This document shows positions 3,932 through 57,271 of a stretch of DNA of 58,437 nucleotides, in pieces; positions within the stretch are counted from its first letter, which is position 1, and the number at the start of each line of letters is the position of its first letter. The position numbers and the translations under genes are program-made. Source of the stretch: an uncultured Oscillospiraceae bacterium. GTDB lineage: Bacteria > Bacillota > Clostridia > Oscillospirales > Oscillospiraceae. Under the pieces are notes generated by a model, which had not been told where the DNA came from, searched no databases, and was given only the letters and a program-made list of their open reading frames with translations. The stretch covers positions 1-58,437 of the forward strand of contig CANPYX010000012.1 of NCBI GenBank assembly GCA_947588955.1, in the 5' to 3' direction.

Positions 3932-4198
3932 AAAAAAGGGCTTCGCCCTTTTTTGCGGAGAAACGTGCGGGAAAAAGTCCTGAATTCTGCGGAATTCAGG
4001 ACTTTTTTCCTGCTGTCGCGCTGCGCGCGCCTTCGTCGTCGCGGAAGCCGCTTAACCTCGCCCCGCCGCAAGCGGCAGGGCTCAGGCGCAGGCTTCGCTC
4101 CTCCTCTCCCCACGCAATCATGATTGCGTGGGGACCCCATAAGGCGGCACACTTGCGCGACAAAAGGATTTTTTCAAGGCACATGTCCTTGTAAAAAA
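3932..4198 (+). repeat. four-hairpin repeat, copy A
   Basis: The first and longest of three related elements. H1: AAAAAAGGGC 3932–3941 with GCCCTTTTTT 3945–3954. The linker carries GAAACGTGCGG. H2: 16-bp stem 3972–3987/3992–4007 closed by loop TGCG. H3: conserved base TGTCGCGC 4014–4021 with GCGCGACA 4155–4162 and about 130 variable bases inside, including a perfect 26-base palindrome at 4108–4133. H4: TTTTTTCAAGG/CCTTG-T-AAAAAA 4169–4198. H1 lies 6 bases after the tRNA-Ser fragment and would terminate its transcript. No protein is plausibly encoded. Confidence 0.85.
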
Positions 4199-4227
4199 TA
4201 TTTGATTTGAGATTCTCCGTTTTCTCC

Positions 4228-4995
4228 TTATTTCCTCTTATTCGCCGCGAACACCGCGTCCTTGTTGGCTTTTATGTCGTCGCGGGCCTTTGTCAGGCGC
4301 TCCTTCAGGTGGTCGGACAGGGCCTTGGAGGAGGAGAAGGGCCTGAAAAAGCGGTGCTTCTGGGCTGTTTTGTCCTGGAAGGCGCGGATGTGCGCCTTGA
4401 GGTTCTCGTACCTGATGATAACGTCGTTGTCCTGCGCGAATTTCCTGAGTCTCGCCACCAGCTGTACGGAGTGGGCAAGGTCGATGATAAAAACGCCGTA
4501 AAACATCCCTATCACAAAGGAAAACGCCAGGTTGTTGGAGAGCCAGCGCAGCGCGTCCAGTATGTAGGGGTGTATGAGGAAGTAGTAAACCGCCCCCAGC
4601 ACCGCCCACGCCAGTGAAAACGTCGGGCAGATGATGCCCTGAATGTTCCCCCACTGGTTGGAGTAGTCCCACAGCCTCACCTTGGCGATCTTAATGCTCA
4701 TGATCCCCGCTATGTACTCGATGGCGGTCATGCACACCGCCATAAATGCGAACAGCGCCGCCTTCTCCCAGAACGGGTTTTCGATCCACGTTGTATTTTC
4801 CAGCGACGCTATGAGGAACAGCAGACACAGCCCCATGCCGTAAAGCGGCACATACGGCCCCGTGCAAAAGCCCGGATTTATCCACTTCCTCTCAGGATTC
4901 GCCTTTGAAAAGAACCGCCTGAAAAACAGCTCCAGCACCCACCCGAACACCGAGCCGATGAAAAACAAAAACGCCAGCGTCAGAAATAAACCCAT
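4228..4995 (-). CDS. CmpB-like putative ABC transporter permease (membrane protein)
   Basis: A 255-residue integral membrane protein. I start at the ATG 4993–4995 with GGGAGG about 9 bases upstream; the longer frame to 5145 runs through the promoter region. There are about five or six hydrophobic segments, from LFLTLAFLFFIGSVFGWVLE at the N-terminus to FVIGMFYGVFIIDLAHS. Conserved-looking WINPGFCTGPYVPLYG and RLWDYSNQWGNIQGIICP fit the ABC_trans_CmpB (PF06541, formerly DUF1113) family of Firmicutes. The C-terminal 60 residues are basic, helical and probably cytosolic. No ATPase partner is adjacent, and the substrate is unknown. It is transcribed divergently from fbp. Confidence 0.7.
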   Translation of the reverse strand: MGLFLTLAFLFFIGSVFGWVLELFFRRFFSKANPERKWINPGFCTGPYVPLYGMGLCLLFLIASLENTTWIENPFWEKAALFAFMAVCMTAIEYIAGIMSIKIAKVRLWDYSNQWGNIQGIICPTFSLAWAVLGAVYYFLIHPYILDALRWLSNNLAFSFVIGMFYGVFIIDLAHSVQLVARLRKFAQDNDVIIRYENLKAHIRAFQDKTAQKHRFFRPFSSSKALSDHLKERLTKARDDIKANKDAVFAANKRK

Positions 4996-5030
4996 CTCTC
5001 TGTCCCTCCCAATATTCGAACGCTTCGTAT

Positions 5031-5058
5031 ATTGTAGCACAGTATCGCGTATTTGAAA
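5031..5058 (-). promoter_or_regulatory. possible promoter of the CmpB-like gene
   Basis: On the minus strand TACAAT (5031–5036) is preceded at 15–16 bases by TTCAAA/TTTCAA (5052–5058). The −10 is good and the spacing short. It overlaps no other gene and points at the ATG at 4995. Confidence 0.4.
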
Positions 5059-5068
5059 ACAGAAATAA

Positions 5069-5097
5069 TTGAATTTATCTCCCCCGTGATATATAAT
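5069..5097 (+). promoter_or_regulatory. promoter of the fbp operon
   Basis: TTGAAT (5069–5074), a 17-base spacer and TATAAT (5092–5097) make a near-consensus sigma-A promoter. Transcription should start near 5104, which excludes the in-frame ATG at 5096 and supports fbp starting at 5135. Confidence 0.75.
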
Positions 5098-5134
5098 GTG
5101 TTTAAAAACCAGATTATTTCGGGGAGTGAGCGAA

Positions 5135-7102
5135 ATGCCGGACAACGGTCAAAATCTCAGGTACTTGTCCCTCCTGTCAAAAAAGTACCCCACCATCGCG
5201 GCGGCGGCGAGCGAGGCAATACGCATCGAGGCGGTCCTGCGCCTTCCCAAGGGCACGGAGCACTTCATGTCCGACCTCCACGGGGAAAACGAGGCGTTTA
5301 TCCACATTCTCAACAACGCCTCCGGCTACATCCGTGAGAAGATCGACACCGTCTTTGAGGGCGAGCTGGACGAGTCTCAGCGCGCGGACCTGGCCACCCT
5401 CATCTACTATCCGGAAAAGAAGCTCCCCTCCCTCAAGGCGGCGCAGCCCGATCTGGAGAGCTGGTACCGCCTCACCCTCATGCGCCTCATAAGGCTCTGC
5501 CGCTTCGTCTCCTCCAAGCACACCCGCGCCCACGTGCGCAAGTGCCTGCCGGAGAGCTGCGCCTACGTGCTGGACGAGCTCCTTCACGCCCACTTTGAGG
5601 ACCACGACAAAAAGCTCTACTACGAGACCATCGTCGACTCCATAATCTCCTACCGCCGCGCCGACCCATACATAATCCGCTTCTGCGAGGTAATAAAGCG
5701 CCTCGCCGTTGACCGCCTCCACATCGTTGGCGACCTCTTTGACCGGGGTCCCCGCCCCGACCTCATTTTGGAGCGCCTTATCGAGCACCACGACGTGGAC
5801 ATCCAGTGGGGCAACCACGACGTTGTCTGGATGGGCGCCGCGGCGGGCAGTCCCATATGCGTCCTTACGGTTCTGAAAACCACCCTCGCCTACAACAACA
5901 CCGACACCGTGGAGCACGGCTACGGCATATCCCTCCGGGAGCTTGACCACATGGCTCAGGAGGTCTACGGCCTCTCGGACGTGGTGCGCTGGATGCCCAA
6001 AACCGACGAGCGCCGCCCCACCACCGCCGAAAAGCTCTACCGCGTTGCCCAAATGCACAAGGCGGTTACGGTGATGATGCTCAAGGCCGAGGCGCAGGTG
6101 ATAGCCCGCAACCCGGATTTCCAAATGCGCGGCAGGGACTACATAAACCAAATCGACTTTGAAAAGGGCACGGTCATATGCGGCGGGAAGGAATACCCCC
6201 TTCTTGACACCGACTTCCCCACCGTTGACCCCGACGCCCCCTCCCGCTTCACCGCCAGGGAATCCGAGGTCCTTCGGGACCTGATACGCGGCTTCCGCCA
6301 CAGCAAGCTCCTTCAAAAGCACGTCCGTTTCCTCTACTCCGCCGGCGGCGTGTACAAGGTCACCAACGGCAACCTCCTCTACCACGGCGCCGTCCCCATG
6401 AACGCCGACGGGAGCTTTGCCGAGGAGACCTTCGAGGGAAAGCGCTATTCCGGTCGCGCCCTCTTTGACTACTGCGACGAGCGCGCCCGCCGGGGCTACT
6501 TCGCCCCCGAGGGCTCCCCCGCCCGTGTCGCCGGGCAGGACTTCCTCTGGTATCTCTGGTGCGGCAGGCTCAGCCCCATTTACGGCAGAAGCGCCATGAC
6601 CACCTTCGAGCGCCTTTACATCGCCGACACCGAGACCCATAAGGAGGTCAAGGACCCCTATTACCGCCTCATAAACGACCCCGACACCGCCGACAGGATA
6701 CTCACCGAGTTCGGGCTGGAGCCCTCGGACTGCCACATAATAAACGGCCACGTCCCCGTGCGGGCGGTGGAGGGCGAGAGCCCCGTCAAGGGCGGCGGCA
6801 AGCTCATCGTCATCGACGGCGGCTTCTGCCGCGCCTACCACGAGAAGACCGGCATAGCCGGCTACACCCTGGTCTACAACTCCCGGGGCCTCACCCTCCG
6901 CACCCACCAGCCCTTTGAGAGCGCCGCCAAGGCCATCGAGGCTGACGGCGACATCGCCTCCACCGGCGAGTACATCTACACCTCCCCCACCCGCCTCACC
7001 GTGGGCGACACCGACGAGGGGCGCGAACAGCGGGCGCTCATCGGGGATCTGAAGGAGCTTGTCAGGGCCTACCGCACCGGTCTCATCAGGGAGACACCCT
7101 GA
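5135..7102 (+). CDS. fbp: fructose-1,6-bisphosphatase, class III
   Basis: A 655-residue cytosolic enzyme that hydrolyses fructose-1,6-bisphosphate to fructose-6-phosphate in gluconeogenesis. The length is usual for the Firmicutes class III enzyme, which belongs to the metallophosphoesterase fold. Metal-site motifs are visible: SDLHGENEAF (about 46–55), GDLFDRG (199–205), GNHD (226–229) and INGHVPV near the C-terminus. The ATG at 5135 has GGGGAG 8 bases upstream and lies downstream of the predicted transcription start. A LytTR regulator starts 12 bases after the stop, so gluconeogenesis and a two-component pair appear to share a transcript, an unusual pairing. The long open frame on the opposite strand is a GC-bias shadow. 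Confidence 0.95.
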   Translation: MPDNGQNLRYLSLLSKKYPTIAAAASEAIRIEAVLRLPKGTEHFMSDLHGENEAFIHILNNASGYIREKIDTVFEGELDESQRADLATLIYYPEKKLPSLKAAQPDLESWYRLTLMRLIRLCRFVSSKHTRAHVRKCLPESCAYVLDELLHAHFEDHDKKLYYETIVDSIISYRRADPYIIRFCEVIKRLAVDRLHIVGDLFDRGPRPDLILERLIEHHDVDIQWGNHDVVWMGAAAGSPICVLTVLKTTLAYNNTDTVEHGYGISLRELDHMAQEVYGLSDVVRWMPKTDERRPTTAEKLYRVAQMHKAVTVMMLKAEAQVIARNPDFQMRGRDYINQIDFEKGTVICGGKEYPLLDTDFPTVDPDAPSRFTARESEVLRDLIRGFRHSKLLQKHVRFLYSAGGVYKVTNGNLLYHGAVPMNADGSFAEETFEGKRYSGRALFDYCDERARRGYFAPEGSPARVAGQDFLWYLWCGRLSPIYGRSAMTTFERLYIADTETHKEVKDPYYRLINDPDTADRILTEFGLEPSDCHIINGHVPVRAVEGESPVKGGGKLIVIDGGFCRAYHEKTGIAGYTLVYNSRGLTLRTHQPFESAAKAIEADGDIASTGEYIYTSPTRLTVGDTDEGREQRALIGDLKELVRAYRTGLIRETP

Positions 7103-7114
7103 GAAAGGCGTACA

Positions 7115-7807
7115 ATGGACCTGAAAATCGCCATCTGCGACGACAGCGCCGCGGACCGCCGCTTTATAGCCGAAATCGCCCGCTCCTGGGCAAAGGATAC
7201 GGGGCGCGACGCGCGGATAACCGAATTTCCCTCCGCCGAGAGCTTCCTTTTCGAGTTTGACGGCGGCTGGGACATACTCCTTCTGGACATCGAGATGGGC
7301 GGAATGGACGGTGTGGAGCTGGCAAAGCGCCTGCGGGAAAAAAGCGCCACGCTCCAGATAGTCTTCATAACCGGTTACTCCGAGTACATCGAGGAGGGCT
7401 ACGAGGTGGAGGCGCTCCACTACCTGGTAAAGCCCGTGGACCCCTCCAAACTGCGTTCCGTGCTGACGCGGGCTGTGGGGAAGCTGGCGAAAAACGAAAA
7501 AGCTTTGACCCTGGACTCCGGCGGCGAGACCGTCCGCGTGCCCGTATACGAGATACGCTGCGCCGAGGTGCGCGGCAACTACGTCACCCTCCACGCACGT
7601 TCCGACATCACGGTGAAAATGACCCTGGGGGAGCTCATGGATATGCTGGACGACAGATTTTACCGGGTGAGCCGCTGGGCAATGGTGAACCTCACCCGCG
7701 TAAGCCGCGTCAGCCGTAACGAGGTGACACTCACCGACGGCTCCGTCATTCCCCTGCCCCGGGGTGCCTGGGAGGGAATAAACCGGGCGATAATCAGCTT
7801 GAGGTAA
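7115..7807 (+). CDS. LytTR-family response regulator
   Basis: A 230-residue two-domain regulator. The receiver domain (about 1–120) has the acidic pair D9/D10, phospho-acceptor D58 (LLLDIEMGGMDG) and K106 (YLVKP). The LytTR DNA-binding domain follows (about 130–228: IRCAEVRGNYVTLHA, FYRVSRWAMVNLTRV, VTLTDGSVIPLPRG). The layout matches AgrA/ComE/VirR regulators, which bind direct repeats one or two helical turns apart. The partner kinase follows 3 bases after the stop. Direct repeats spaced 21 bp at 8472–8501, just before the ABC exporter genes, are its most likely target. The family is certain; the target is inferred. Confidence 0.93.
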   Translation: MDLKIAICDDSAADRRFIAEIARSWAKDTGRDARITEFPSAESFLFEFDGGWDILLLDIEMGGMDGVELAKRLREKSATLQIVFITGYSEYIEEGYEVEALHYLVKPVDPSKLRSVLTRAVGKLAKNEKALTLDSGGETVRVPVYEIRCAEVRGNYVTLHARSDITVKMTLGELMDMLDDRFYRVSRWAMVNLTRVSRVSRNEVTLTDGSVIPLPRGAWEGINRAIISLR

Positions 7808-7810
7808 ATT

Positions 7811-8509: not shown

Positions 8510-8536
8510 CACGGGGGCGGATTTTTGTGTTAGTAT
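8506..8536 (+). promoter_or_regulatory. possible activator-dependent promoter of the ABC exporters
   Basis: TTGACA (8506–8511) is followed at 18–19 bases by TTAGTA/TAGTAT (8530–8536). The long spacer and poor −10 fit an activated promoter. The start site would fall near 8543, leaving a leader of only about a dozen bases that just contains the GAGGTGA ribosome site, so the call is tentative. Confidence 0.4.
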
Positions 8537-8555
8537 GTCCCGTGAGGTGAGCAAA

Positions 8556-10364: not shown

Positions 10365-10366
10365 CC

Positions 10367-12232: not shown

Positions 12233-12287
12233 CCACACCCCCTCCCCTTTTCGGTGAGCGGTTAAAATTATTTCGCTTTACGATGGC

Positions 12288-12316
12288 ATTATACCACTAA
12301 GCTAAGTAAATGTCAA
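12288..12316 (-). promoter_or_regulatory. full-consensus promoter directed antisense into the second ABC gene
   Basis: On the minus strand TTGACA (12311–12316), 17 bases and TATAAT (12288–12293) match both consensus hexamers exactly, and TGG precedes TATAAT as an extended −10. Transcription would begin near 12281 and run leftward, opposite to the 3' end of the ABC exporter gene. No minus-strand gene follows for kilobases. An antisense or small RNA is possible. Confidence 0.65.
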
Positions 12317-12356
12317 GAAAATTTTTATTAATCCGAAATATTCGCAAGTTTTGCAA

Positions 12357-12397
12357 AGTAATTTCCTCCGGAAGCTCCCGGAGGAAATTACTTTTTT
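12357..12397 (+). terminator. terminator after the ABC exporter operon
   Basis: A perfect 15-bp stem (12357–12371 with 12378–12392; arms end CCTCCGG/CCGGAGG), a 6-base loop and a T-run to 12397. It closes the fbp–regulator–kinase–ABC transcript. The rest of 12233–12505 holds the antisense promoter and nothing else I can name. Confidence 0.9.
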
Positions 12398-12505
12398 CCG
12401 TTTTGTTACAAAAAATATGCCTGTTTGTCCCCGAATCCTGCCTCGGCTGATACAGGCGCGGCGCAATATTGTCACGGCACTTGAGATAAGGGGGCAGTCA
12501 AAGCC

Positions 12506-38685: not shown

Positions 38686-41339
38686 TTTGCCTCCAGCCAG
38701 TTTTTGCCAATATTCGCCTCCACGGTGAGGGGCACGGAGAGCGTCGCCGCGCCCTCCATCTCACGTATGAGGAGCTCCCGCACCGCCTGGGCGTCAGCCT
38801 CGGCGCACTCGACGATGAGCTCGTCGTGGACCTGCAGCAGCAGGGCGGCGTCAAGACCGGAGGCCCTCAGCGCCCTGTCCACGTTTACCATGGCTATCTT
38901 CACGATGTCCGCCGCTGTGCCCTGTATCGGCATATTGCGCGCCACGCGCTCGCCGAAGGAGCGAAGGTTGAAGTTGGACGCCCTCAGCTCCGGCATCGGG
39001 CGTATGCGCCCGTAGAGCGTGCGCACAACGCCCGTCTCCTTCGCCTCCCTGACCACCCGTTCCATGTAGTCGGACACGCCCTTATAGGTGGCCATGTAGG
39101 TGCTTATATAGTCCTTTGCCTCGGCCACGGAGACGCCTATGTCCTCGGAGAGGGAGAAGGCGGATATGCCGTAGACGATGCCGAAATTCACCGCCTTGGC
39201 GTGGCTCCTCTGCTCATGGGTCACCTGCTCCGGGGATATACCCAGGACTTGAGCGGCGGTGGAGCGGTGTATATCCTGCCCCAAGAGGAAGGCGTTTTTC
39301 ATGTTCTCGTCCCCTGATATGTGGGCGAGGATACGAAGCTCGATCTGGCTGTAATCCGCGTCCACCAGCACCCGTCCCGCGGGTGCCACGAACATCCGGC
39401 GGATCTCCCCGCCCAGCTCCCGCCGGACAGGTATGTTTTGCAGGTTTGGCTCGGTGGAGGACAGGCGCCCCGTGGCGGTGACGGTCATCTGGAAGCTTGT
39501 GCGCACTCGCCCGTCGGGGTCTATCACCTTGTAAAGTCCCTCCACGTAGGTGGACTTGAGCTTTGAGAGCTCCCGGTACTCCAGCACTTTACCCACGATG
39601 GGGTGGCGGTGTCTAAGCTTTTCCATCACGTCGGCGTTGGTGGAGTATCCCCGGTTGTTTTTCTTCCAAGCGGGAAGTCCCAGCCTTTCAAAAAGCACCT
39701 CCCCCAGTTGCTTGGGGGAATTTATGTTGAATTTCACCCCGGCAAGGGCGTGTATTTCCTCCGTCAGGGCGTTGAGGCTGTCGGTGAGGTTGTTCCCAAA
39801 GGTCAAAAGCGCCTGCTCGTCCACCAGCATACCCTCCCGCTCCATTCGGGCAAGCACCGGGCAAAGGGGAAGCTCCACATTTTCAAAAAGCTCCGTCAGA
39901 CCCTTCTCTCGGAGCTTTGGCGTCAGCCTCTCCCGCAGCGCCGCGACCCCCGCCGCCTCGGAAAGGAGTCTTGATACCAGCTTCGTTCCGTCGTCAAGTA
40001 GGGAGAACTGCCCGTCCTCCTCCGCGCCGTCCATTATTGTGAAGCCGCAGTATTTTTGACACAGCGCCCCCAGCTCATACCGGCTTGCCGTGGGGTCCAG
40101 GAGATACGCGGCAAGCGCCGAGTCGAAGACCCAGCCCTCCGGCTCAAGCCCCATGTCCATCAAGGCGCGGATGGTGTCCTTTATGTCGTGCCCCAGCTTT
40201 TTTACCTCCGGCGCGCAAAGGACCTCCAGGGCGCTTCTCCAGGTGGGCCAGCTTTCCCGCAGAATGTAGCCTGTGAACGCTTCCTCGCTGTCAACGTCCG
40301 CGCAGCAGATGTCCATGCCCTGGGAAAAGCGCAAGGATACGGGGTATTTTTTTACAACCTCGGAAAACTCCGCCAGCGCCGCTTCATCCGAAACCTCCAC
40401 GGTGACGCACTCCGCCTCTATCATCGGCTCCGACTTTTCGTCGGGTTCCGGAGGGGTGAGTCTATACGCCTCAATGAGCTTGCGGAACTCAAGGCGGGTG
40501 AAAAGCTCATAGAGCCTGTCGTTGTCCACGGGTCTCACCAGGTTCTCCTCCGGAGAAAACTCCAGCGGCGCCTCGCACCTGATGGTGGCAAGGTCCTTTG
40601 ACAGCGCCGCCATTTCCCGCCCCTCGGTAAGCTTGGCGATAAGTGACGGCTTTGCCGGCACGTCCGGCGCTTGGAAAATGTCAGGAAGCTTTTCATATAT
40701 GGCGTCTACGCTCCCGTAGAGCTGTATTAGCCCCATGGCGGTCTTTTCCCCCACGCCCCGCACGCCGGGTATGTTGTCGGAGGAGTCGCCCATGAGCGCC
40801 TTTAAGTCTATCATGTGGATTGGTTCAAAGCCGTAGTCGGCGCGGAACACCTCCGGCGTCACACGTTTGGTGCTCGTATTGCCCATGCGTGTGGTTATTA
40901 GGTCCACGGTGGTGGCGTCGCTAACAAGCTGGAGGCTGTCCCTGTCGCCGGTGCACACAACGCACTCCCACCCCGCCGAGGCGCATTTTTTCGCGATGGT
41001 CCCAAGAAGGTCGTCCGCCTCCCAGCCCTCCAGTTCGTAGCGGCGGATGTTCATGGCGTCCAGCGTCTCCTTCAATATCGGCATCTGGACGGCAAGCTCA
41101 TCGGGCATCTTGTGGCGGGTCGCCTTGTAGCCATCGTACTGCCTGTGCCGGAAGGTGGGTGCGGGCAGGTCAAAGGTGACGCACAGCGCGTCGGGCCCCT
41201 CCTCCGAGATTATCCGGCGGAGGATATTTATAAACCCGAAAACGGCGTTTGTCGGCGTCCCGTCCGCCGTATTCAGCGGCCTCACCCCAAAAAACGCCCT
41301 GTTAACTATGCTGTTCCCATCCAGAACCACAAGCTTCAT
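38682..41339 (-). CDS. polA: DNA polymerase I
   Basis: An 885-residue family A polymerase for repair and Okazaki-fragment processing. The 5'-nuclease domain (about 1–290) begins MKLVVLDGNSIVNRAFFG and includes WEADDLLGTIA and GDSSDNIPGVRGVGEKTA. The polymerase domain has RVLVDADYSQIELRILAHIS, QRSHAKAVNFGIVYGISAFS and LLLQVHDELIVE. The 3'–5' exonuclease domain between them is degenerate: the DTE metal motif is missing (MDICCADVDSEE stands there), so proofreading is probably lost, as in Bacillus and Thermus enzymes. It is first in polA–rimI–tsaD. Confidence 0.97.
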   Translation of the reverse strand: MKLVVLDGNSIVNRAFFGVRPLNTADGTPTNAVFGFINILRRIISEEGPDALCVTFDLPAPTFRHRQYDGYKATRHKMPDELAVQMPILKETLDAMNIRRYELEGWEADDLLGTIAKKCASAGWECVVCTGDRDSLQLVSDATTVDLITTRMGNTSTKRVTPEVFRADYGFEPIHMIDLKALMGDSSDNIPGVRGVGEKTAMGLIQLYGSVDAIYEKLPDIFQAPDVPAKPSLIAKLTEGREMAALSKDLATIRCEAPLEFSPEENLVRPVDNDRLYELFTRLEFRKLIEAYRLTPPEPDEKSEPMIEAECVTVEVSDEAALAEFSEVVKKYPVSLRFSQGMDICCADVDSEEAFTGYILRESWPTWRSALEVLCAPEVKKLGHDIKDTIRALMDMGLEPEGWVFDSALAAYLLDPTASRYELGALCQKYCGFTIMDGAEEDGQFSLLDDGTKLVSRLLSEAAGVAALRERLTPKLREKGLTELFENVELPLCPVLARMEREGMLVDEQALLTFGNNLTDSLNALTEEIHALAGVKFNINSPKQLGEVLFERLGLPAWKKNNRGYSTNADVMEKLRHRHPIVGKVLEYRELSKLKSTYVEGLYKVIDPDGRVRTSFQMTVTATGRLSSTEPNLQNIPVRRELGGEIRRMFVAPAGRVLVDADYSQIELRILAHISGDENMKNAFLLGQDIHRSTAAQVLGISPEQVTHEQRSHAKAVNFGIVYGISAFSLSEDIGVSVAEAKDYISTYMATYKGVSDYMERVVREAKETGVVRTLYGRIRPMPELRASNFNLRSFGERVARNMPIQGTAADIVKIAMVNVDRALRASGLDAALLLQVHDELIVECAEADAQAVRELLIREMEGAATLSVPLTVEANIGKNWLEAK

Positions 41340-41373
41340 AATTTCACCCCTAAACTTATGCCTTAACCTTTTT

Positions 41374-41403
41374 ATTTTACCACCTCAGCGGTATAAATGT
41401 AAA
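41374..41403 (-). promoter_or_regulatory. polA promoter
   Basis: Minus-strand TTTACA (41398–41403), 18 bases, TAAAAT (41374–41379) with TGG directly before the −10. It lies about 35 bases before the polA ATG and to the left of repeat copy B. Confidence 0.6.
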
Positions 41404-41441
41404 GAAAAAGAGCCAAAATCCCGTAAAAACTCAAATTCAAT

Positions 41442-41610
41442 ATTTTTCCGGCGGCATGTACGTCGGAAAAATTTCCTTTTGTCACGCAAGTGTGCCGCCT
41501 CCGGCGGCGCACTTGCGCGACGGCAGGAAATCCCTTGAGAAAGGTCCGCAGACCTTTCTCAAGGGATTTCCGCACGTTTCCCCTTCAAAAAAGGGCGTCA
41601 GCCCTTTTTT
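41442..41610 (-). repeat. four-hairpin repeat, copy B
   Basis: Second copy, on the minus strand, directly at the 3' end of cysS. In element order: H1 AAAAAAGGGC/GCCCTTTTTT (41601–41610 and 41587–41596) includes the cysS stop codon. The GAAACGTGC linker follows. H2 is a perfect 21-bp stem (41551–41571 with 41526–41546) with loop TGCG read on minus. H3 has base GTCGCGCAAGT/ACTTGCGTGAC (41511–41521 with 41481–41491) and a short GC tip. H4 is ATTTTTCCG/CGGAAAAAT (41464–41472 with 41442–41450). It is the most compact copy, with all four hairpins intact. Confidence 0.88.
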
Positions 41611-43058
41611 GAAAACTTCCATGTCGTCCCTCCGGGGACGTCGGTGAGCTCTATGCCCCGGAGCTTAAGCTCGTCGCGTATCCTGTCTGCCTCGGCAAAG
41701 TTTTTCTCCCTCTTGGCATTCGCCCTTTGGAGTACGAGGGCGTCGATCTCCGGGTCGCCCTCGCCGGTGACGGTGAAGCCCTGAGCGGAGGTGGCTCCCG
41801 CGGCGGCCTTGGCGTCAGCCTCCCTCTTTGCCGCCGCCTTTTCTGTAAGGCTCAGCCCCAGTACCCGGTCGTAGTCCCCGATCACCGCAAGGCGCGTGGC
41901 GTCGTTTGTCTTCGCCTTCAGCGCGTCGTAGACCGCCGTGACGCCCAGGGAGGTGTTCAGATCGTTGCCCACCGCCTTGATGAATTTTTCCCGGTACTCG
42001 TCCAGCACCTCGCCGTCCACGGGTCCGTCGGACGGGTCCAGGGCGGCTATGCGGGCGATGAGCTTTTTATACGCCAACGCCGCGTTGTCCAGGTTCTCCC
42101 AGGTGAACACCAGCGCCTTGCGGTAGTGGCTCTGGAGGCAGAAGAAGCGGTACGCCAGCGGGTCATAGCCCTTCTGCTCCAAAAGCGTGACGGTGAGGAA
42201 TTCCCCCTTGGATTTTGACATCTTCCCGTCGCCGGTGTTCAGGTGGTGGACATGGAACCACTGGGGGCACCAGGGGTGACCCAGGTAGCTCTCTGACTGG
42301 GCGATCTCGTTGGTGTGGTGGGGGAAGGCGTTATCTATGCCGCCGCAGTGCAGGTCCAGATACTCGCCGTTGTACTTTAGGGATATGGCGGAGCACTCGA
42401 TGTGCCAGCCGGGGTAGCCCACGCCCCATGGGGAGTCCCATTTCAAGGCCTGGTCCTCAAATTTTGATTTGGTGAACCAGAGGACAAAGTCGTTTTTGTT
42501 CCGCTTGTTCAGGTCCTCCTCCACGCCCTCACGGACGCCCACATGGAGGTCCTCCTCGTCGTGGTCGAAAAAGACGTGGTAGCGTTGAAGCTTCGACGTG
42601 TCAAAATATACGTTCCCGCCGGCAAAATAGGCATACCCCTTGTCCATGAGCCCCTGTACCATCTCTATAAACTCCGGTATGAGCCCGGTGGCGGGCTGTA
42701 CCACGTCGGGCGTCTTGATGTTCAGCTTTTCGCAGTCGGCGAAAAAGGCGTCGGTGTAGAATTTGGCTATCTCCATCACCGTCTTGTGCTCGCGGCGGGC
42801 GCCCATGAGCATCTTGTCCTCGCCCTCGTCGCTGTCGCCGGAGAGGTGCCCCACGTCGGTGATATTCATGACCCTGTTCACGTCGTACCCCTCAAATCTC
42901 AGGTACTTCTCCAGCACGTCCTCCATGATGTAGGAGCGCAGGTTGCCGATGTGGGCGAAGTGATACACCGTGGGTCCGCAGGTGTACATCTCCACGTGCC
43001 CCGGCGTGTGGGTCTTAAACTGCTCCTTTTTGCGCGTGGCGGAGTTATAAAGATACAT
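41598..43058 (-). CDS. cysS: cysteinyl-tRNA synthetase
   Basis: A 486-residue class I synthetase. The zinc/catalytic start is MYTCGPTVYHFAHIGNLRS with the HIGH-type HIGN (about 37–40). Zinc ligands are in GWHIECSAI and HHTNEIAQSE, and the KMSKS loop is GKMSKSKGEF. The C-terminal DALR and tail regions follow. It starts 2 bases after cysE under the Cys T-box leader. The last codons (FSKKG then stop) lie inside hairpin H1 of repeat copy B, so the repeat appears to have defined the C-terminus and supplies the terminator. Confidence 0.96.
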   Translation of the reverse strand: MYLYNSATRKKEQFKTHTPGHVEMYTCGPTVYHFAHIGNLRSYIMEDVLEKYLRFEGYDVNRVMNITDVGHLSGDSDEGEDKMLMGARREHKTVMEIAKFYTDAFFADCEKLNIKTPDVVQPATGLIPEFIEMVQGLMDKGYAYFAGGNVYFDTSKLQRYHVFFDHDEEDLHVGVREGVEEDLNKRNKNDFVLWFTKSKFEDQALKWDSPWGVGYPGWHIECSAISLKYNGEYLDLHCGGIDNAFPHHTNEIAQSESYLGHPWCPQWFHVHHLNTGDGKMSKSKGEFLTVTLLEQKGYDPLAYRFFCLQSHYRKALVFTWENLDNAALAYKKLIARIAALDPSDGPVDGEVLDEYREKFIKAVGNDLNTSLGVTAVYDALKAKTNDATRLAVIGDYDRVLGLSLTEKAAAKREADAKAAAGATSAQGFTVTGEGDPEIDALVLQRANAKREKNFAEADRIRDELKLRGIELTDVPGGTTWKFSKKG

Positions 43059-45075: not shown

Positions 45076-45078
45076 GAT

Positions 45079-49027: not shown

Positions 49028-49052
49028 CAGTGTCGCGCCTCCCGTCAAAGCT

Positions 49053-49994: not shown

Positions 49995-50031
49995 TTTTTA
50001 TTCCTCCTGTGTATCTCATAGGGTGTCCGCC

Positions 50032-51480: not shown

Positions 51481-51527
51481 CCGTCCGCCTCCCTTCCCCG
51501 ATTTTTACCCTTGAGTATCTTGAGTAC

Positions 51528-52214: not shown

Positions 52215-52227
52215 CGCTTTCTCCCTG

Positions 52228-53553
52228 TCAGGTTTCCCCTGTGATCCACTCTGAATATATGAGTCCAAAATTGTCTATCAGCATTTGGCGGCTCACGGGA
52301 AGCGCGTCCTCCGTGAGTATCCTCGCGGCGTAAACCGTCTCTTCCGAGCGGGACAGCATGAAGCGCCCTCCCACGGACGCCCTCTCCTCCCGCTTCTCTC
52401 CGGTGAGAGTGTATACCGCCAAAAAGTCCTTATCCCTCGCCCCGTTCTCGCTCACGGTGGAGAAGATTATCATTCTCTCTCCGCTGGCGCCCTCCTCGCG
52501 GCTCAGGGTTATCTTACCCTTCCACGAGTCCGGCAGCACCAGATACCAGGAATCGGTGTAATTTGAGTATGTGGTGCAGACGAGCCGTCTGGAGCCGCCG
52601 GGGTAGTAGGAGTACCAGTCAATGGTGTAGTAGGTGGTCCCTTCCGTGGTGGGCGGCAGGGGAACGGGCTGCGGCACGTCGATTACGCCGTCGGAGTCGA
52701 TGTCCCGGCAGTATAGGGCGTAGCTGAGCCTCAGCGTCCCCTCGCTGACGCCGGAATTCTCGTCCAGCGTCACGTTGGCAAGCTTTCCGTTCTGCCAGGC
52801 AAGGATGTCCGTGACGATGCCCGTGCCGTTCATGGTGCTCTCCACCAGTATGGCGCTCCGCCCGCCTAAAAGCTGCGTGGAGCGGACCCTCAAAAGCGCC
52901 TCGGTGCCGGAGGAGAGCCGTGCGGTGCCGGTCACCACCTCGCCGTCGCCGGTGAGGGCGTAGTGCTCCGCCTGCCCCGAAAGCTCCGACTGGGATAGCC
53001 TCAGCACAAGTATGTCGCTGCCCGTCTCGCCGTCCATGTCGCAGACGGTGTACTCGGAGTAGTTGGTGTTCACCAGCCTGTTCACCTGCCAGCCGCTTAT
53101 GGAGTAGACCGACAGCATATTTATCCCCGCGCCCATCTGCCAGCCCACGGCGACCTCACGGACACCGTCGCCGTTCATGTCGAGGTAGGCCACGCTCTCT
53201 ATCCCCGTGCCCTCTCCCTCGATGCGGGCAATCTCGCTGTATTCCCCGTCAACGCTTCGGAACACCACTATCTTCAACGGCCTGTCGGTGCCGGCGAAGT
53301 TGAAGAAGGCTATGACCTCCCTGACCCCGTCCCCGTCCAGGTCCTCCCGCTGTATGGGCTGGCGGTTGGCGCCGGTGGAGGGCGCGGCGTACTCGGCGCC
53401 CGAGGAAAGCACGGAATCTATGGCGCTCTGGAGCTTCAAATACCCCTCGGAAAGCTGCGGCAGGGCATAAAGCGAGTCCGCCGACATCTCCATACACCCA
53501 CCCAGACACAGCGCCATGACAAGCGCCACGGCGAGCAGCATCACTTTCCTCAT
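52228..53553 (-). CDS. lipoprotein with FG-GAP/VCBS-like calcium-binding repeats
   Basis: A 441-residue lipoprotein. The signal peptide ends in a lipobox, MALCLGGC, with lipidated C20. The body has four calcium-loop repeats of FG-GAP type: REDLDGDGVREVIAFF, LDMNGDGVREVAVGW, CDMDGETGSDILVL and RDIDSDGVIDVPQP. These suggest a beta-propeller. It should be anchored on the outer face of the membrane. It heads an operon with a response regulator and sensor kinase, so it may bind a ligand or calcium and signal to the kinase; this is inferred. The frame extends upstream to 54129 only as a shadow of the phosphopantetheinyl transferase gene. Confidence 0.82.
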   Translation of the reverse strand: MRKVMLLAVALVMALCLGGCMEMSADSLYALPQLSEGYLKLQSAIDSVLSSGAEYAAPSTGANRQPIQREDLDGDGVREVIAFFNFAGTDRPLKIVVFRSVDGEYSEIARIEGEGTGIESVAYLDMNGDGVREVAVGWQMGAGINMLSVYSISGWQVNRLVNTNYSEYTVCDMDGETGSDILVLRLSQSELSGQAEHYALTGDGEVVTGTARLSSGTEALLRVRSTQLLGGRSAILVESTMNGTGIVTDILAWQNGKLANVTLDENSGVSEGTLRLSYALYCRDIDSDGVIDVPQPVPLPPTTEGTTYYTIDWYSYYPGGSRRLVCTTYSNYTDSWYLVLPDSWKGKITLSREEGASGERMIIFSTVSENGARDKDFLAVYTLTGEKREERASVGGRFMLSRSEETVYAARILTEDALPVSRQMLIDNFGLIYSEWITGET

Positions 53554-53589
53554 ATCCGCGGCGCCCCCTTCGCATAATAGTTCATTGTA

Positions 53590-53648
53590 ATTATACCACA
53601 AGATTTTATTTTTTGGTAGTGTTTTTCTCTCCGTTTTTGTGGTACAAT
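53590..53648. promoter_or_regulatory. divergent extended −10 promoters
   Basis: On minus, TGGTATAAT (53590–53598) faces the lipoprotein gene. On plus, TGGTACAAT (53640–53648) faces the phosphopantetheinyl transferase gene. Both have the TGG extension and weak −35 boxes. The 60-base gap carries no other feature. Confidence 0.6.
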
Positions 53649-53679
53649 GTAAAAAATTCGTGACGGAGGGGATAGCATC

Positions 53680-54201
53680 ATGGTAAAGGCGTATTCGGCG
53701 CTGTCTCCGCTCAGGTCCGACGCGTACCGCCTGCTTGAATACGCGGTGCGTGAGATCTGGTCGGTACCCTGTCCGGAAATCGCCCGCTCCCCGCGGGGAA
53801 AGCCATATTTCCCCTCGCGCCCGGACATCTTCTTCTCCATAAGCCACTCCGGCGGCAGGGTCCTTGCCGCCGTGGCTGATGTGCCCGTGGGCTGTGACGT
53901 ACAGAGCACCGCCGTCCCCGTAAAACAAAGCGTCGTCGCCCGCGTGTGCCGCCCGGAGGAGCTTGAGGGACTTGGCTTTTTCGACCTGTGGACCCTGAAG
54001 GAGTGCTGGCTCAAAATAACCGACCTGCCTCTCGATATGCGCGGCATCGTCTTCCACGCCGGCTCCGGTCTCATAGTCCCCCCGGACCCCGCCTTTTCCG
54101 CGCGTCTCTACCCCTCCAATGGCTTCCAAACCGCCCTCGTCGCTCGCGGAGACCTCCCCAAGGAAATAACAGAGCTTGATATTTTATCCTTGCATTTTTG
54201 A
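53680..54201 (+). CDS. Sfp-type 4'-phosphopantetheinyl transferase
   Basis: A 173-residue enzyme that activates carrier proteins with the CoA phosphopantetheine arm. Motifs in order are FFSISHSGGRVLAAV (51–65), GCDVQ (71–75, metal D73) and WTLKECWLK (104–112, with K107 and E108). It is shorter than Sfp (about 224) and lacks much of the C-terminal lobe, as in some compact clostridial enzymes. No polyketide or peptide synthetase is nearby, so the target may be the general acyl carrier protein or a distant cluster. GGAGGGG lies before the ATG. Confidence 0.85.
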   Translation: MVKAYSALSPLRSDAYRLLEYAVREIWSVPCPEIARSPRGKPYFPSRPDIFFSISHSGGRVLAAVADVPVGCDVQSTAVPVKQSVVARVCRPEELEGLGFFDLWTLKECWLKITDLPLDMRGIVFHAGSGLIVPPDPAFSARLYPSNGFQTALVARGDLPKEITELDILSLHF

Positions 54202-54218
54202 TGACAGTAGTATATAAT
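54190..54218 (+). promoter_or_regulatory. tRNA-Leu promoter
   Basis: TTGCAT (54190–54195), 17 bases, TATAAT (54213–54218). Transcription would start near 54225, just before the tRNA. The −35 overlaps the end of the phosphopantetheinyl transferase gene. Confidence 0.8.
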
Positions 54219-54231
54219 ACATTACGCACCC

Positions 54232-54313
54232 GCCGGTGTGATGGAATTGGCAGACGTGCTTGACTCAAAATCAAGTGCCGCAAGGCGTGCCGGTTCGAGT
54301 CCGGCCACCGGCA
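54232..54313 (+). tRNA. tRNA-Leu(CAA)
   Basis: Folds as a class II tRNA. The acceptor stem is GCCGGTG/CACCGGC with discriminator A. The D arm is in TGGAATTGGCAGACG. The anticodon arm is CTTGA-CTCAAAA-TCAAG with anticodon CAA (codon UUG). The variable arm is GCC-GCAA-GGC, and the T arm is GCCGG-TTCGAGT-CCGGC. CCA is not encoded. A terminator follows after two bases. Confidence 0.95.
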
Positions 54314-54315
54314 TC

Positions 54316-54352
54316 GCGAAAAGGGAACCGCTTTGGCGGTTCCTTTTTTCGC
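54316..54352 (+). terminator. tRNA-Leu terminator
   Basis: GCGAAAAGGGAACCGC pairs with GCGGTTCC-TTTTTTCGC around a short loop. The stem carries its own T-run. The stretch 54353–54555 after it holds nothing I can identify. Confidence 0.85.
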
Positions 54353-54555
54353 AATACCGGTGGCATGATTGAATCAGAAGGGTAACCCTGACGGTTCCCC
54401 TTCCCATCCCTTCCCTCCGATAACCTTGACGGGCGGAAATAGGAGTTTTAACCGCTTTCCTGGTGCGCACGGTCTTTGCCAAAGCCAAAGACCGCCCCTC
54501 CGCGCTCGCGTCCCGTCTTTAATCGGGTTATTTTGCCGACAGCTCAACAAATCAC

Positions 54556-54584
54556 TTGCCGGCAAACGGAATATATGGTATCAT
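54556..54584 (+). promoter_or_regulatory. aquaporin promoter
   Basis: TTGCCG (54556–54561), 17 bases, TATCAT (54579–54584) with TGG before the −10. Confidence 0.6.
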
Positions 54585-54630
54585 CTTCTTGGCGGGATAG
54601 ACCGCCGATCAAACTAAGGGAGTGTTTAAT

Positions 54631-55296
54631 TTGAAGGACCTCAAAAAGTACATCGCCGAGTTTATCGGCACATTCGTCCTTGTGCTCTTCGCCTGCGGCA
54701 CCGCCGCGGTGGTTGGGTGCTCCTCGGAAAACGGAACGGGCTATCTGCTGACCGCCCTGGCCTTCGGCCTTGTGATCGTGGCTATGGCATATTCCATCGG
54801 CAACGTCTCCGGCTGCCACATCAACCCCGCCGTCTCCATCGCCATGCTGGTCTCCGGCAAGCTGAGCGTCAAGGATTTCATCGGCTACGTCGTCGCCCAA
54901 TTCCTGGGCGCCATCGCCGGCGCCGCGGTGCTCATGGCGTTCGTGGGCAAAGATTCGGGCCTGGGCGCCAACGCCCTCTATAACGGCAGCGTCATCTCCA
55001 GCCTGCTCATTGAGGTGATCCTCACCTTTGTATTCGTCATCGCCATCCTGGGCGTGACCAGCAAGCTTGAGAACAGCTCCGTCTCCGGCATAGTCATCGG
55101 CCTCACACTCACCCTGGTCCACATCCTGGGCATCTCCTTCACCGGCACCTCCGTCAACCCCGCCCGCTCCTTCGGTCCCGCCCTCTTTGTCGGCGGCGAA
55201 GCCCTCAGCAGCGTGTGGGTGTTCATCGTCGCCCCTCTGGTTGGCGGCGTCCTTGCGGCGCTGGTGTACAAATTCCTCACCGCCGAGGAGAAATAA
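54631..55296 (+). CDS. aquaporin/glycerol facilitator family channel
   Basis: A 221-residue MIP channel with six membrane helices and both NPA signatures: HINPAVSIAML (first half) and SVNPARSFGPAL (second half). In the second signature ARS supplies the selectivity-filter Arg. The small residues around it and the compact length (about 220) fit an AqpZ/AQP-type water channel more than a glycerol facilitator. AAGGGAG at 54616–54622 gives best spacing to TTG at 54631; a GTG at 54622 lies inside that site. It is a single gene with its own promoter and terminator. The start has moderate certainty. Confidence 0.9.
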   Translation: MKDLKKYIAEFIGTFVLVLFACGTAAVVGCSSENGTGYLLTALAFGLVIVAMAYSIGNVSGCHINPAVSIAMLVSGKLSVKDFIGYVVAQFLGAIAGAAVLMAFVGKDSGLGANALYNGSVISSLLIEVILTFVFVIAILGVTSKLENSSVSGIVIGLTLTLVHILGISFTGTSVNPARSFGPALFVGGEALSSVWVFIVAPLVGGVLAALVYKFLTAEEK

Positions 55297-55310
55297 GCGC
55301 CAAACCTCTC

Positions 55311-55350
55311 AAAAAAAGCGGACGGGCACAGCTCTCGCCCGCTTTTTTTC
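55311..55350 (+). terminator. aquaporin terminator
   Basis: AAAAAAAGCGG...GGGC pairs with GCCC-GCTTTTTTT across 55311–55350, with a small internal bulge and a terminal T-run. Confidence 0.8.
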
Positions 55351-55372
55351 ATCTTTTCCCGCCTGATTCGGC

Positions 55373-55401
55373 TTGCAAAAAAGCGGCGCTTGTGTTAAGA
55401 T
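55373..55401 (+). promoter_or_regulatory. promoter of the B12-binding radical SAM gene
   Basis: TTGCAA (55373–55378), 17 bases, TAAGAT (55396–55401). It lies 35 bases before the ATG at 55436. Confidence 0.65.
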
Positions 55402-55435
55402 GTGGGCAGTATGTTTTGCACAAAGGAGTGTTATT

Positions 55436-57103
55436 ATGGCAGAGAACAAGGGAACCGTCGTTCTCGTGGCATTTTACAACGTGAAGGCGCTGGGCGTCCG
55501 TTACCTGGAGACCTCCCTGCGCAAGGCGGGCTATGAGGTCCGCACCATATTTTTGAAGCAGTTCAACAGCGAGCGCCCCAAGCAGATAACGCAAAAGGAG
55601 CTGGAGCTTCTCTGCGAGAAGATACGCGAGGTCAAGCCCGTGCTGGTTGGGCTCTCCGTCATGTGCTCCCTTTACATGGAGACCATCGACAAGGTCATCG
55701 CCACCCTCCAAAAGGCGGGCATCGGCCCCCTTGCCGTTGGCGGTGCCTTCGCCTCCATGGACCCGGAGTATTTTTTGAAGGCCGGCATCCCCTACGTCCT
55801 GAGGCTCGACGGCGAGGTGTCCATCGTGAAGCTTGCCGACTGTATGCGCGGCGAGGGGAAGCTTGAGGACGTGCCCTCCATGCACCACATGAGGGACGGG
55901 GAGTACATCAAGAACCCCATCTCCTGCATCTGCCACGACCTGGACGAGTACGGCGAGCCCACCGTCCACTGCCCCGACGCCTGGCTCATCGACAACGACG
56001 CCGCCACCCCCGGTGACCCCCAGCGCAGCACGCTGAGCTACGAGGTCGTCGCCTCCCGCGGCTGTCCCTTCAACTGCTCCTACTGCTCCGACCCCGTTCT
56101 GAGGAAGCTCTACCCCAAGGCGGATCAGAAGGTGCGCACCCGCTCCGTCCGCAGCGTGATCGCCGAGCTGCGCGAGGCGCTGAAGTGGTGCAAAAACATC
56201 GCCTTCATCCACTTCTACGACGAGATATTCCCCAACCTCCCCGGCTGGGTGGACGAGTTTGTCGTTGAGTACAAGAAATATATAAATCTCCCCTTCTCCA
56301 TATGGACCCACCCCTACGCCACCAAGCCCGACGTGCTGAAAAAGCTCACAAGCGTCGGACTTATCGAGGTCATCATGGGCATACAGTCCGGCGACCCCAC
56401 TGTCCGCAGCGACATCTTCTTCCGCCACGAGAAGAACGAGGACATTCTGAACGCCATCAAGTGCATCCACGAGTCCGGCGTATTCTGGGCGACCTACGAC
56501 TTCATCCTCCAGCACGCCTTTGAGACCGTGGACAGCATGAAAAACTCCTACGAGCTGGTGAAAAAGATGGAGGGGCGCTACGAGCTCCAGCTCCACAGCC
56601 TGAACTTCCTCCCCAACACCCAGATAGTTGACCTCGCCACCTACGCCGGCTTCTACACCCCAGAGGAGCTTTACGTGTCCATGCACGCCTCCATGGAGGA
56701 GCAGTTCGGCGCCTTCCACGCCCGCCTGGACGCCAAGGACAAAGTCCCGGCGGACATTAAGGGCGAGCTCAAACCCGGTGCCACCCCCGAGACGGCGGGC
56801 GACGACAAGGACCTGGCAAACGGCTTGGTGGTCGCCAAGCGCATAGCGGAGGAGATGAACGCCCGTACCCAGGAGCAGAAGACAAATGACGCCGCCGCCA
56901 TCCAGATGTACTACGACCTCATGTACCTCTGGCAGTTCCCCGTGTTCCGCAAGAGGTGCCTTGAGTACGAAAAGGACGTGCTGGCGCACAGGAGCGAGAT
57001 CGAGGCGGACTACAAAAAAGCCGAAAAGCTCTTCCGCCTGCGCTACCTCTACAAAAAATCCATGACCGTCATAAAGCGGCGGATACAGAGACCATTCAAC
57101 TAA
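55436..57103 (+). CDS. B12-binding radical SAM protein of unknown substrate
   Basis: A 555-residue class B-like radical SAM enzyme. The N-terminal Rossmann-type cobalamin-binding domain (about 1–150) includes VALFY-like VVLVAFYNVKALGVRYLETS and VGLSVMCSLYMETIDKV. The radical SAM core follows with the cluster cysteines C210, C214 and C217 in SRGCPFNCSYCSD and a YDEIFPNLP region. The C-terminal 150 residues are helical with a Lys/Glu-rich stretch. Substrate is unknown; relatives act in methylation or ring formation on peptides, lipids or tetrapyrroles. I start at 55436 where AAAGGAG fits; the longer frame overlaps the promoter. It stands alone, with no precursor peptide. Confidence 0.85.
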   Translation: MAENKGTVVLVAFYNVKALGVRYLETSLRKAGYEVRTIFLKQFNSERPKQITQKELELLCEKIREVKPVLVGLSVMCSLYMETIDKVIATLQKAGIGPLAVGGAFASMDPEYFLKAGIPYVLRLDGEVSIVKLADCMRGEGKLEDVPSMHHMRDGEYIKNPISCICHDLDEYGEPTVHCPDAWLIDNDAATPGDPQRSTLSYEVVASRGCPFNCSYCSDPVLRKLYPKADQKVRTRSVRSVIAELREALKWCKNIAFIHFYDEIFPNLPGWVDEFVVEYKKYINLPFSIWTHPYATKPDVLKKLTSVGLIEVIMGIQSGDPTVRSDIFFRHEKNEDILNAIKCIHESGVFWATYDFILQHAFETVDSMKNSYELVKKMEGRYELQLHSLNFLPNTQIVDLATYAGFYTPEELYVSMHASMEEQFGAFHARLDAKDKVPADIKGELKPGATPETAGDDKDLANGLVVAKRIAEEMNARTQEQKTNDAAAIQMYYDLMYLWQFPVFRKRCLEYEKDVLAHRSEIEADYKKAEKLFRLRYLYKKSMTVIKRRIQRPFN

Positions 57104-57109
57104 TTTTAC

Positions 57110-57271
57110 AAAAAAGGGCGGAGCCCTTTTTTGAAATGGGAACGTGCGAAAAAGGTTTTGGAAATGTCTGCGGACATTTCCGAAACCTTTTTCTGCTGTC
57201 GCGCTGCGCGCATGACCGAAGGTCATACACTTGCGCGACAAAAGGAAATTTTTTCGACGTACATCTGCTCG
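57110..57271 (+). repeat. four-hairpin repeat, copy C (truncated in H4)
   Basis: Third copy, 6 bases after the radical SAM stop. H1: AAAAAAGGGC 57110–57119 with GCCCTTTTTT 57123–57132. Linker GGGAACGTGCG. H2: 21-bp stem 57148–57168/57173–57193 with one G·U pair and loop TGCG. H3: TGTCGCGC 57197–57204 with GCGCGACA 57233–57240 and tip ATGACC-GAA-GGTCAT. H4: TTTTTTCGA 57249–57257 and the start of its partner (TCG, 57269–57271). The expected A-run is replaced by TGGGGATA. The break suggests insertion of the recombinase-bearing DNA. Confidence 0.85.

What the first reader, a model, noticed from the sequence alone, without database searches (positions are those of the whole stretch)
3932..57271. 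Three-copy family of four-hairpin repeats, not matching any repeat class I know
Related elements at 3932–4198 (+), 41442–41610 (−) and 57110–57271 (+) share the same order of parts: terminator-like hairpin H1, linker with AACGTGC, long hairpin H2, composite hairpin H3 built on TGTCGCGC/GCGCGACA, then CAAAAGGA and a T-rich hairpin H4 with a GTACAT- or CACATG-like core. Conserved ends with variable stems, and no coding potential, suggest a mobile or structured-RNA cassette spread as units. It is not a CRISPR array, and the layout does not match REP/BIME or group II intron structures.
Basis: seen in the sequence. Interest (0 to 1): 0.85.

Follow-up and report, generated by a model that had tools for sequence, protein, structure and literature searches.

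The report
Hairpin-rich mini-transposon that targets gene terminators
The three repeats are copies of a small non-coding jumping element, very abundant in this gut bacterium, that tends to land on stem-loops at the ends of genes and whose hairpins keep pairing while their sequences change and are swapped between copies.

Summary
The three elements belong to one very large family. A covariance model gives 135 matches in this genome and 129 in its sister species (first 150 candidates scored in each) and at least one match in 30 of 33 same-genus relatives. There are 112 distinct H2 sequences among 133 copies, yet their own arms pair at 99.4% of positions, against 67% for arms of different copies.

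The family is best explained as a MITE, a non-autonomous relative of IS1182-family insertion sequences. Copies with readable ends share terminal repeats (AGNYTGTC...GACAGNCT) with IS1182-family elements in related genomes. For both, the whole target stem-loop can stand on both sides of the insert. Sister genomes show filled and empty sites. Only about a tenth of copies have exact ends. The window's three copies have none, so they belong by homology.

What I cannot explain is that whole hairpins reassort between dispersed copies: modules are near linkage equilibrium, and at orthologous sites single hairpins are replaced while flanks stay about 95% identical. RAYT is not the driver here.

The parts
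3930..4199 (+). Copy 1: H1 (3930-3956), linker with AACGTGCG (3962-3969), H2 (about 3967-4013), H3 with a nested module (about 4015-4161), H4 (about 4168-4199), then a short conserved tail
   Evidence: model match 3923-4208, 139.3 bits
4031..4141 (+). Nested ~110-nt module inside H3 of copy 1; 22 of 133 parsed copies have such a long H3
   Evidence: orthologous elements with and without it
41442..41613 (-). Copy 2: H1 (41613-41584, overlapping the end of cysS), AACGTGCG (41578-41571), H2 (41573-41523), H3 (41521-41481), H4 (41472-41442)
   Evidence: model match 41433-41619, 187.8 bits; the sister genome has H1 but no H2-H4 here
57109..57267 (+). Copy 3: H1 (57109-57133), AACGTGCG (57141-57148), H2 (about 57146-57196), H3 (57198-57239), truncated H4 (about 57246-57267)
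   Evidence: model match 57101-57287, 157.3 bits; the sister orthologue has other H2 and H3 alleles and an intact H4
41598..43058 (-). cysS, the gene directly upstream of copy 2; its stop codon lies in the loop of H1

Best explanation
The repeats are a high-copy MITE family, that is, short non-coding transposons moved in trans by an IS1182-family DDE transposase. SHOWN: (a) the copies with readable ends run from a left end AGNYTGTC, which is the outer strand of hairpin H1, through H2, H3 and H4 to a right end GACAGNCT or CAACAGNCT; IS1182-family insertion sequences in sister genomes have the same ends. (b) For several such copies and for five of those IS, a whole stem-loop stands on both sides of the insert. 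(c) Sister genomes show filled and empty sites. (d) Copies tend to lie directly behind stop codons, in the direction of the upstream gene. (e) Stems vary but stay paired, and whole hairpins differ independently between orthologous copies. INFERRED: the stem-loops hit are gene terminators (by look and place only); the transposase recognises the stem-loop as structure, as reported for IS1272; cuts staggered around the hairpin duplicate it, while loss of it gives the replacement type; H1 supplies a new terminator at the landing site, which makes insertion behind genes tolerable; pairing is kept by selection or by arm-to-arm correction. UNKNOWN: how whole hairpins are exchanged, and which IS moved the copies in this genome, where no IS1182 gene was found.
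For: Copy number: 135 model matches in G000 and 129 in G019, first 150 candidates scored each (opposite-strand echoes occur); 31 nhmmer places in about 453 kb of G000 and 23 in 472 kb of G019, stretches not chosen at random. Ends: exact left motif at 13 of 153 elements versus 2 of 459 control windows, exact right motif at 16 of 153 versus 1 of 306; with one mismatch 30 of 153 versus 17 of 459 and 41 of 153 versus 24 of 306. The exact pattern TTTGTCAACAGNYTG occurs 10 times in 8 genomes, 0 in the reversed control, and 9 of the 10 lie directly behind an H4. IS match: the right end of L019 matches the IS in L298 at 18 of 19 bases (E 0.006) and the left end of 9C2_46136 matches the IS end in L308 at 16 of 16 (E 0.002). 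Transposases: NF033551 IS1182, 440 and 380.7 bits against a cut-off of 270. Stem-loop on both sides: 7 elements at 6 sites of 153 elements (direct-repeat scores 32, 28, 27, 23, 17, 14, 13; mismatched control n=1500, 99% quantile 11, maximum 13), 5 IS copies among 18 distinct loci looked at, 3 elements of two other genera among at most 19 tested (no control). Single copy at the empty site: 9C2_179658 (repeat AGTGAGGTTAT) and 9C2_46136. Insertion direction: at L017, 6 of 6 genomes with a full-length hit, of 15 searched, keep an intact gene end; only G000 has the element. Placement: upstream gene co-oriented at 97 elements and opposite at 30, of 135 tested (p 2e-9).
Against: Most copies show no exact terminal repeat: the left motif is missing in 140 of 153 and the right in 137 of 153; only 5 have both. 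The window's three copies show none. G000 has 0 matches to IS1182 and 0 to DDE_Tnp_1; element-rich G017, G018, G027 and G033 also have no IS1182 match, although drafts often lose IS. H2, H3 and H4 have no recognisable counterpart in ten IS loci: besides the ends only hits of 12-20 bases. One insertion with a single-copy empty site (9C2_179658) has an 11-base repeat that is not a hairpin and a left end that is not AGNYTGTC. Score 13 (L202) is also reached by the control. A simple terminator scan did not call H1 in copies 2 and 3, because the T run lies inside the stem; in copy 2 it called only H4, on the opposite strand.
Confidence: 0.85

Rival explanations
1. A genuine structured-RNA or mRNA 3'-end element (terminator plus stabilising hairpins, or a family of small RNAs) kept by selection for its RNA function; mobility is incidental. 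This is not strictly exclusive of the best explanation.
For: Strong compensatory change; sense orientation close behind stop codons; conserved H4.
Against: The element is absent at some orthologous sites of a ~95% identical sister; it cuts the end of a gene at L017; it has transposon-like ends and flanking repeats; alleles at one site are replaced wholesale. In the window Rfam reaches gathering score only for a tRNA elsewhere.
Confidence: 0.2
2. The copies with IS1182-type ends are a side branch: the four-hairpin cassette mostly spreads by another route (recombination, or another enzyme), and IS1182 only occasionally carries it.
For: Exact ends in only about a tenth of copies; an insertion without a recognisable left end (9C2_179658); element-rich genomes without detectable IS1182.
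Against: Flanking stem-loop repeats, where found, coincide with those ends; elements of other genera show similar ends and a stem-loop on both sides.
Confidence: 0.12
3. REP/BIME elements moved by a RAYT (Y1_Tnp) enzyme.
For: High-copy intergenic palindromes; Y1_Tnp is present in 12 of 23 genomes tested, including G019.
Against: No Y1_Tnp match in G000, G010 and G005, all full of the element; the element has terminal inverted repeats and flanking duplications, which REPs lack (recalled).
Confidence: 0.02

Closest known systems
IS1182 family, especially IS1272 and TnSha1 of staphylococci (PMC5678879: abstract, sections 22 and 24, and passages seen; PMC4923244: start of abstract and passages seen)
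   Same: Same transposase family as the putative parent (NF033551); targets are stem-loops, often transcription terminators, without sequence preference; target sizes 21-85 bp in PMC5678879.
   Different: Those papers report loss or replacement of the target stem-loop and no target duplication. Here a whole stem-loop stands on both sides of five IS copies and several MITEs; replacement-like sites also occur (L017, L166). The present element carries no transposase.
Prokaryotic MITEs as a class (review PMC10969869, passages seen)
   Same: Short, non-coding, mostly intergenic, forms stem-loops, terminal repeats, parent IS.
   Different: Four separate hairpins that covary and reassort; placement at gene ends. 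The word IS1182 does not occur in the main text of that review.
Pneumococcal BOX, RUP and SPRITE (PMC3049150: search listing and start of abstract; PMC10969869 passages; otherwise recalled)
   Same: High-copy intergenic stem-loop repeats; BOX is modular; SPRITE is terminator-like.
   Different: Different host and build; no relation in sequence was tested.
REP/BIME with RAYT (PMC2817692 and PMC8266576: search listings and starts of abstracts)
   Same: Many intergenic palindromes per genome.
   Different: No RAYT match in this genome; has terminal repeats and target duplications.
Allomyces mitochondrial double-hairpin elements and Bacillus cereus bcr1 (recalled, not looked up)
   Same: Mobile hairpins whose stems change in a compensated way.
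   Different: Other hosts; comparison not tested.

Membership tests
MITE | Short, no transposase gene | tested here: met
   Complete copies are about 210-330 nt, too short for a transposase. Long mechanical ORFs run through copies 2 and 3 (41155-41538 +, 55349-57241 -) but are not confined to them
MITE | Terminal inverted repeats | tested here: met
   For a minority of copies: 13 of 153 left and 16 of 153 right exact, 5 with both, far above control windows. Not met in the three window copies
MITE | Flanking target duplication with a single copy at the empty site | tested here: met
   9C2_179658 and 9C2_46136
MITE | Ends shared with an autonomous IS | tested here: met
   IS1182-family loci L298, L308, L295, L316, L317, L319; the IS is in relatives, not found in G000
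MITE | Transposition in trans by that IS | not testable with these tools
   Needs an experiment
IS1182 family (parent IS) | Transposase matches the IS1182 model | tested here: met
   440 and 380.7 bits, cut-off 270, for the proteins of L298 and L295
IS1272-type inverted-repeat replacement | Target stem-loop lost, no duplication | tested here: inconclusive
   Sites L017 and L166 look like replacement by eye; six MITE sites and five IS copies keep a stem-loop on both sides
REP/BIME | RAYT (Y1_Tnp) present | tested here: not met
   0 matches in G000, G010, G005
Known Rfam RNA (group II intron models included in the library by recall) | Reaches a gathering score | tested here: not met
   Only one tRNA in the window; permissive searches gave only scores below gathering at the elements
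CRISPR array | Regular direct repeats with spacers | tested here: not met
   Copies are 15-37 kb apart in the window and in both orientations

The most novel reading that the evidence does not exclude
The dispersed copies form one reassorting population of hairpin cassettes: a stem-loop-targeting IS1182-type transposase, or repair triggered by the hairpins, excises and replaces individual hairpins inside other copies. Each copy is then a changing string of modules, and stem pairing is regenerated by copying one arm from the other rather than by slow selection.
Probability: 0.2. Interest if true: 0.85.

Novelty: new variant of a known kind. Interest (0 to 1): 0.6.

Why it matters
It places a large repeat family of gut Oscillospiraceae, for which I found no description, beside a known transposon family and explains why it sits behind genes. 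It gives natural material to ask how IS1182-type transposases read DNA shape instead of sequence, and when they duplicate or replace the stem-loop. With this many well-paired, reassorting hairpins per genome it makes the question 'selection or arm-to-arm DNA correction?' directly testable. It also warns that strong covariation in a repeat is not by itself proof of a functional RNA.

Tried and rejected
Rfam at gathering score and with permissive limits: no family. Viral contigs: 3 exact matches to an H3-tail pattern; the stretch printed around each (about 220 nt) holds no other part of the element, and two of the three are near-identical. Phage and plasmid collections: no match to copy 2. RAYT: rejected. 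H1 right arm as a copy of the host gene end (suggested by G010 at cysS): not supported in general, because H1 cores recur at unrelated sites and H1 arrives with the insertion at L017. Simple conversion from sampled copies as the source of new H2 alleles: only 7 of 42 differing H2 alleles were found verbatim at another sampled site of the same genome, against 22 of 40 for H3; not all copies were sampled. Loose end-pair scan for an IS in the stretches held: 71 pairs, the 30 printed mostly looking like chance. A first ORF caller let spurious frames run through the elements and was replaced by the one. The 39 sequences of A1 are 39 of the 41 short copies listed; I left out two close orthologues (one copy each of L040 and L042), and all were picked by a pattern, so the invariance of the anchor bases in A1 is by construction and is not used as evidence. 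Scripts that failed or matched nothing through my own errors: (first regex).
Full report
WHAT IS THERE. The three elements are real and have the parts described. An anchor pattern across H2 finds 33 copies in the genome, the three of the window included, with 0 in the reversed control; among 59 relatives it finds 28 in G019 and one each in five others, all of the same genus. G019 is the MAG CANQVL01 of an uncultured Oscillospiraceae bacterium: its contig lengths 200007, 212782 and 126958 are those listed for that record; the isolate name begins 'Lapin', which I take to mean rabbit gut. A covariance model from 39 copies without the nested insert (R1) gives 135 matches in G000 and 129 in G019, with only the first 150 candidates scored in each. 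Opposite-strand echoes occur, so these are approximate. In contiguous stretches nhmmer places 31 elements in about 453 kb of G000 and 23 in 472 kb of G019; the contigs were not chosen at random. Of 99 genomes searched with R1, 47 have a match at E 1e-4 or better: G000, 30 of 33 same-genus, 13 of 27 other same-family and 3 of 38 other same-order genomes; some of these are single weak matches. Distant hits that I read keep the order H1, (H2), composite H3, H4 with a related loop, and several add a fifth hairpin.

PAIRING. In A1, 31 of 52 predicted pairs have at least one sequence with both sides changed and the pair kept. From 160 elements of G000 and G019 I parsed 133 unique ones; 27 were not parsed or were duplicates. 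They hold 112 distinct H2 sequences. Own arms pair (G-T allowed, best of nine registers) at 99.4% of positions and 121 of 133 are fully paired, against 67.1% for arms taken from different copies (n=19683, 1.4% fully paired). H1 is as variable: 114 distinct left arms of 133, stems of 9-26 bp with at most one mismatch. In one H2 lineage (25 distinct sequences, 23 pairs) 99.3% of cells pair and 43 cells are changed on both sides, against 10.6 in shuffles (0 of 500 as high), and sliding the partner by one to three columns destroys it. H4 is nearly fixed: one sequence makes up 57 of 133.

PLACE. Of 160 elements, 25 were too near a sequence end. Among the 135 tested with a simple ORF caller that ignores frames running over the element, the upstream gene points the same way at 97 and the other way at 30 (p 2e-9), with none near at 8. 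At 60 of the 97 the gene ends between 10 nt before and 30 nt after the model start. Both neighbours converge on the element at 58, and only 8 elements lie between two gene starts. At copy 2 the cysS stop codon lies in the H1 loop.

MOBILITY. G000 and G019 are about 95% identical, with 11.7% difference at four-fold sites of 12 long ORFs (430 of 3661; ORFs mechanical, not all verified as genes). Copy 2 has H1 but no H2-H4 in G019; among ten other genus members two (G024, G010) have their own element there and the model finds none in the other eight. At L017 six of six genomes with a full-length hit (15 searched) keep an intact gene end close to the following gene, while in G000 the element sits in the last codons and H1 supplies the stop (read by eye). 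In G019, 9C2_179658 is flanked by AGTGAGGTTAT, single in G000; 9C2_46136 is flanked by a 25-29-nt stem-loop, single in G000. In all, 10 of 45 G000 sites and 7 of 40 G019 sites with both flanks found were flagged as shorter in the other genome. By eye, 6 and 4 of these lack the element (two of the six keep H1, one is a partial copy); the others differ by nested modules, partial loss or flanking inserts.

ENDS AND PARENT. Direct repeats touching the ends were found for 7 elements at 6 sites as whole stem-loops of 25-35 nt: L019 with its orthologue L040, L196, L058, 9C2_46136, L071 and L202 (scores 13-32; mismatched control of 1500 pairs, 99% quantile 11, maximum 13). Two further elements score 13 without a stem-loop. 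These sites define a left end AGNYTGTC within H1 (L019 and L202 deviate slightly) and a right end GACAGNCT or CAACAGNCT. Exact ends are rare overall (13 and 16 of 153, 5 with both) but well above control (2 of 459 and 1 of 306). The pattern TTTGTCAACAGNYTG occurs 10 times in 8 genomes (control 0), and 9 of the 10 lie directly behind an H4. DDE_Tnp_1 loci in relatives showed the same ends, and the two proteins tested are IS1182-family. Five IS copies (L298, L295, L316, L317, L319) carry a whole stem-loop of 23-34 nt on both sides; 18 distinct loci were looked at, at least four of them another DDE group with other ends. Three elements of two other genera (L157, L218, L229; at most 19 tested, no control) also carry a stem-loop on both sides, two of them (L218, L229) with a similar right end. 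IS1182 matches occur in 33 of 99 relatives, 14 above cut-off, but none in G000.

EXCHANGE OF HAIRPINS. Of 33 orthologous pairs, 24 could be parsed in both species; in the other nine one or both sides were not parsed, some because the element is missing. At these 24, single hairpins differ far beyond the four-fold divergence while neighbours are identical. For example, at site 66 H2 is identical while H1, H3 and H4 differ, each still paired by eye. Across 133 elements, classes of H2, H3 and H4 look independent: mutual information is below the shuffled mean in 4 of 5 comparisons and 0.058 against 0.055 in the fifth. H1-H2 is borderline (50 of 1000 shuffles as high); H1 against H3 and H4 is not significant (135 to 593 of 1000). 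The two halves of H3 are linked (0.347 against 0.073, 0 of 1000), so the test has power and the unit of exchange looks like the hairpin. At orthologous sites the class agrees at 15 of 24 for H1 (10 by chance), 15 for H2 (5), 13 for the H3 outer stem (13), 7 for the H3 tip (5) and 21 for H4 (16). The classes are coarse and were set by me.

WHAT IS KNOWN. IS1272 and TnSha1 (IS1182 family) target stem-loops, often terminators, and are reported to delete or replace them without duplication (PMC5678879: abstract, sections 22 and 24, passages; PMC4923244: passages including parts of the abstract). PMC5678879 cites Siguier et al. for IS1182 members that target palindromes, without detailed data. Searches on hairpin repeats, on IS1182 with MITE and on terminator-targeting elements listed no account of a hairpin-rich IS1182 MITE. 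I saw listings only, for example 12 of 1,052 papers and 15 of 37, and the library lacks most subscription journals, so this is weak evidence of novelty.

VERDICT. An IS1182-type MITE family is the best-supported reading (0.85). The whole-stem-loop duplication and the reassorting hairpins are the unusual parts. The window copies themselves have no readable ends.

Noticed in passing
window 4031-4141: A ~110-nt module nested in H3 of copy 1; 22 of 133 parsed copies have such a long H3, and a related stretch lies shortly downstream of the element in L006. By eye its own stems also vary in a paired way. It may be a second mobile hairpin unit.
   Followed up: partly
window 57267-58431: A large serine recombinase gene (PF07508, ORF 57319-58431 -) ends about 50 nt beyond the truncated H4 of copy 3, and the match to the sister genome stops at 57264; an integrated element may have cut copy 3.
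   Followed up: partly
window 3826-3925: A weak tRNA-Sec-like match (17.3 bits, gathering score 47, E 1.7) directly upstream of copy 1; ARAGORN calls no tRNA there.
   Followed up: partly
L024, L044, L018, L029, L045, L110: A different recurrent hairpin, CTGGCTT..AATGCCAA, stands beside or in place of H1 in several copies.
   Followed up: no
L294, L305, L306, L311: A second DDE insertion-sequence group in G031 and G010, with inverted repeats like CACGGCRACAGCATTTACTTTTC near the gene.
   Followed up: no
L040/L054 next to the L019 orthologue: An 854-bp insert in G019, absent from G000, left of the duplicated stem-loop.
   Followed up: no
L127 (G024) and L183, L174 (G000): Two H1-type hairpins in tandem, each followed by a GGGGAAACG-like linker, as if H1 units can be added one by one.
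   Followed up: partly
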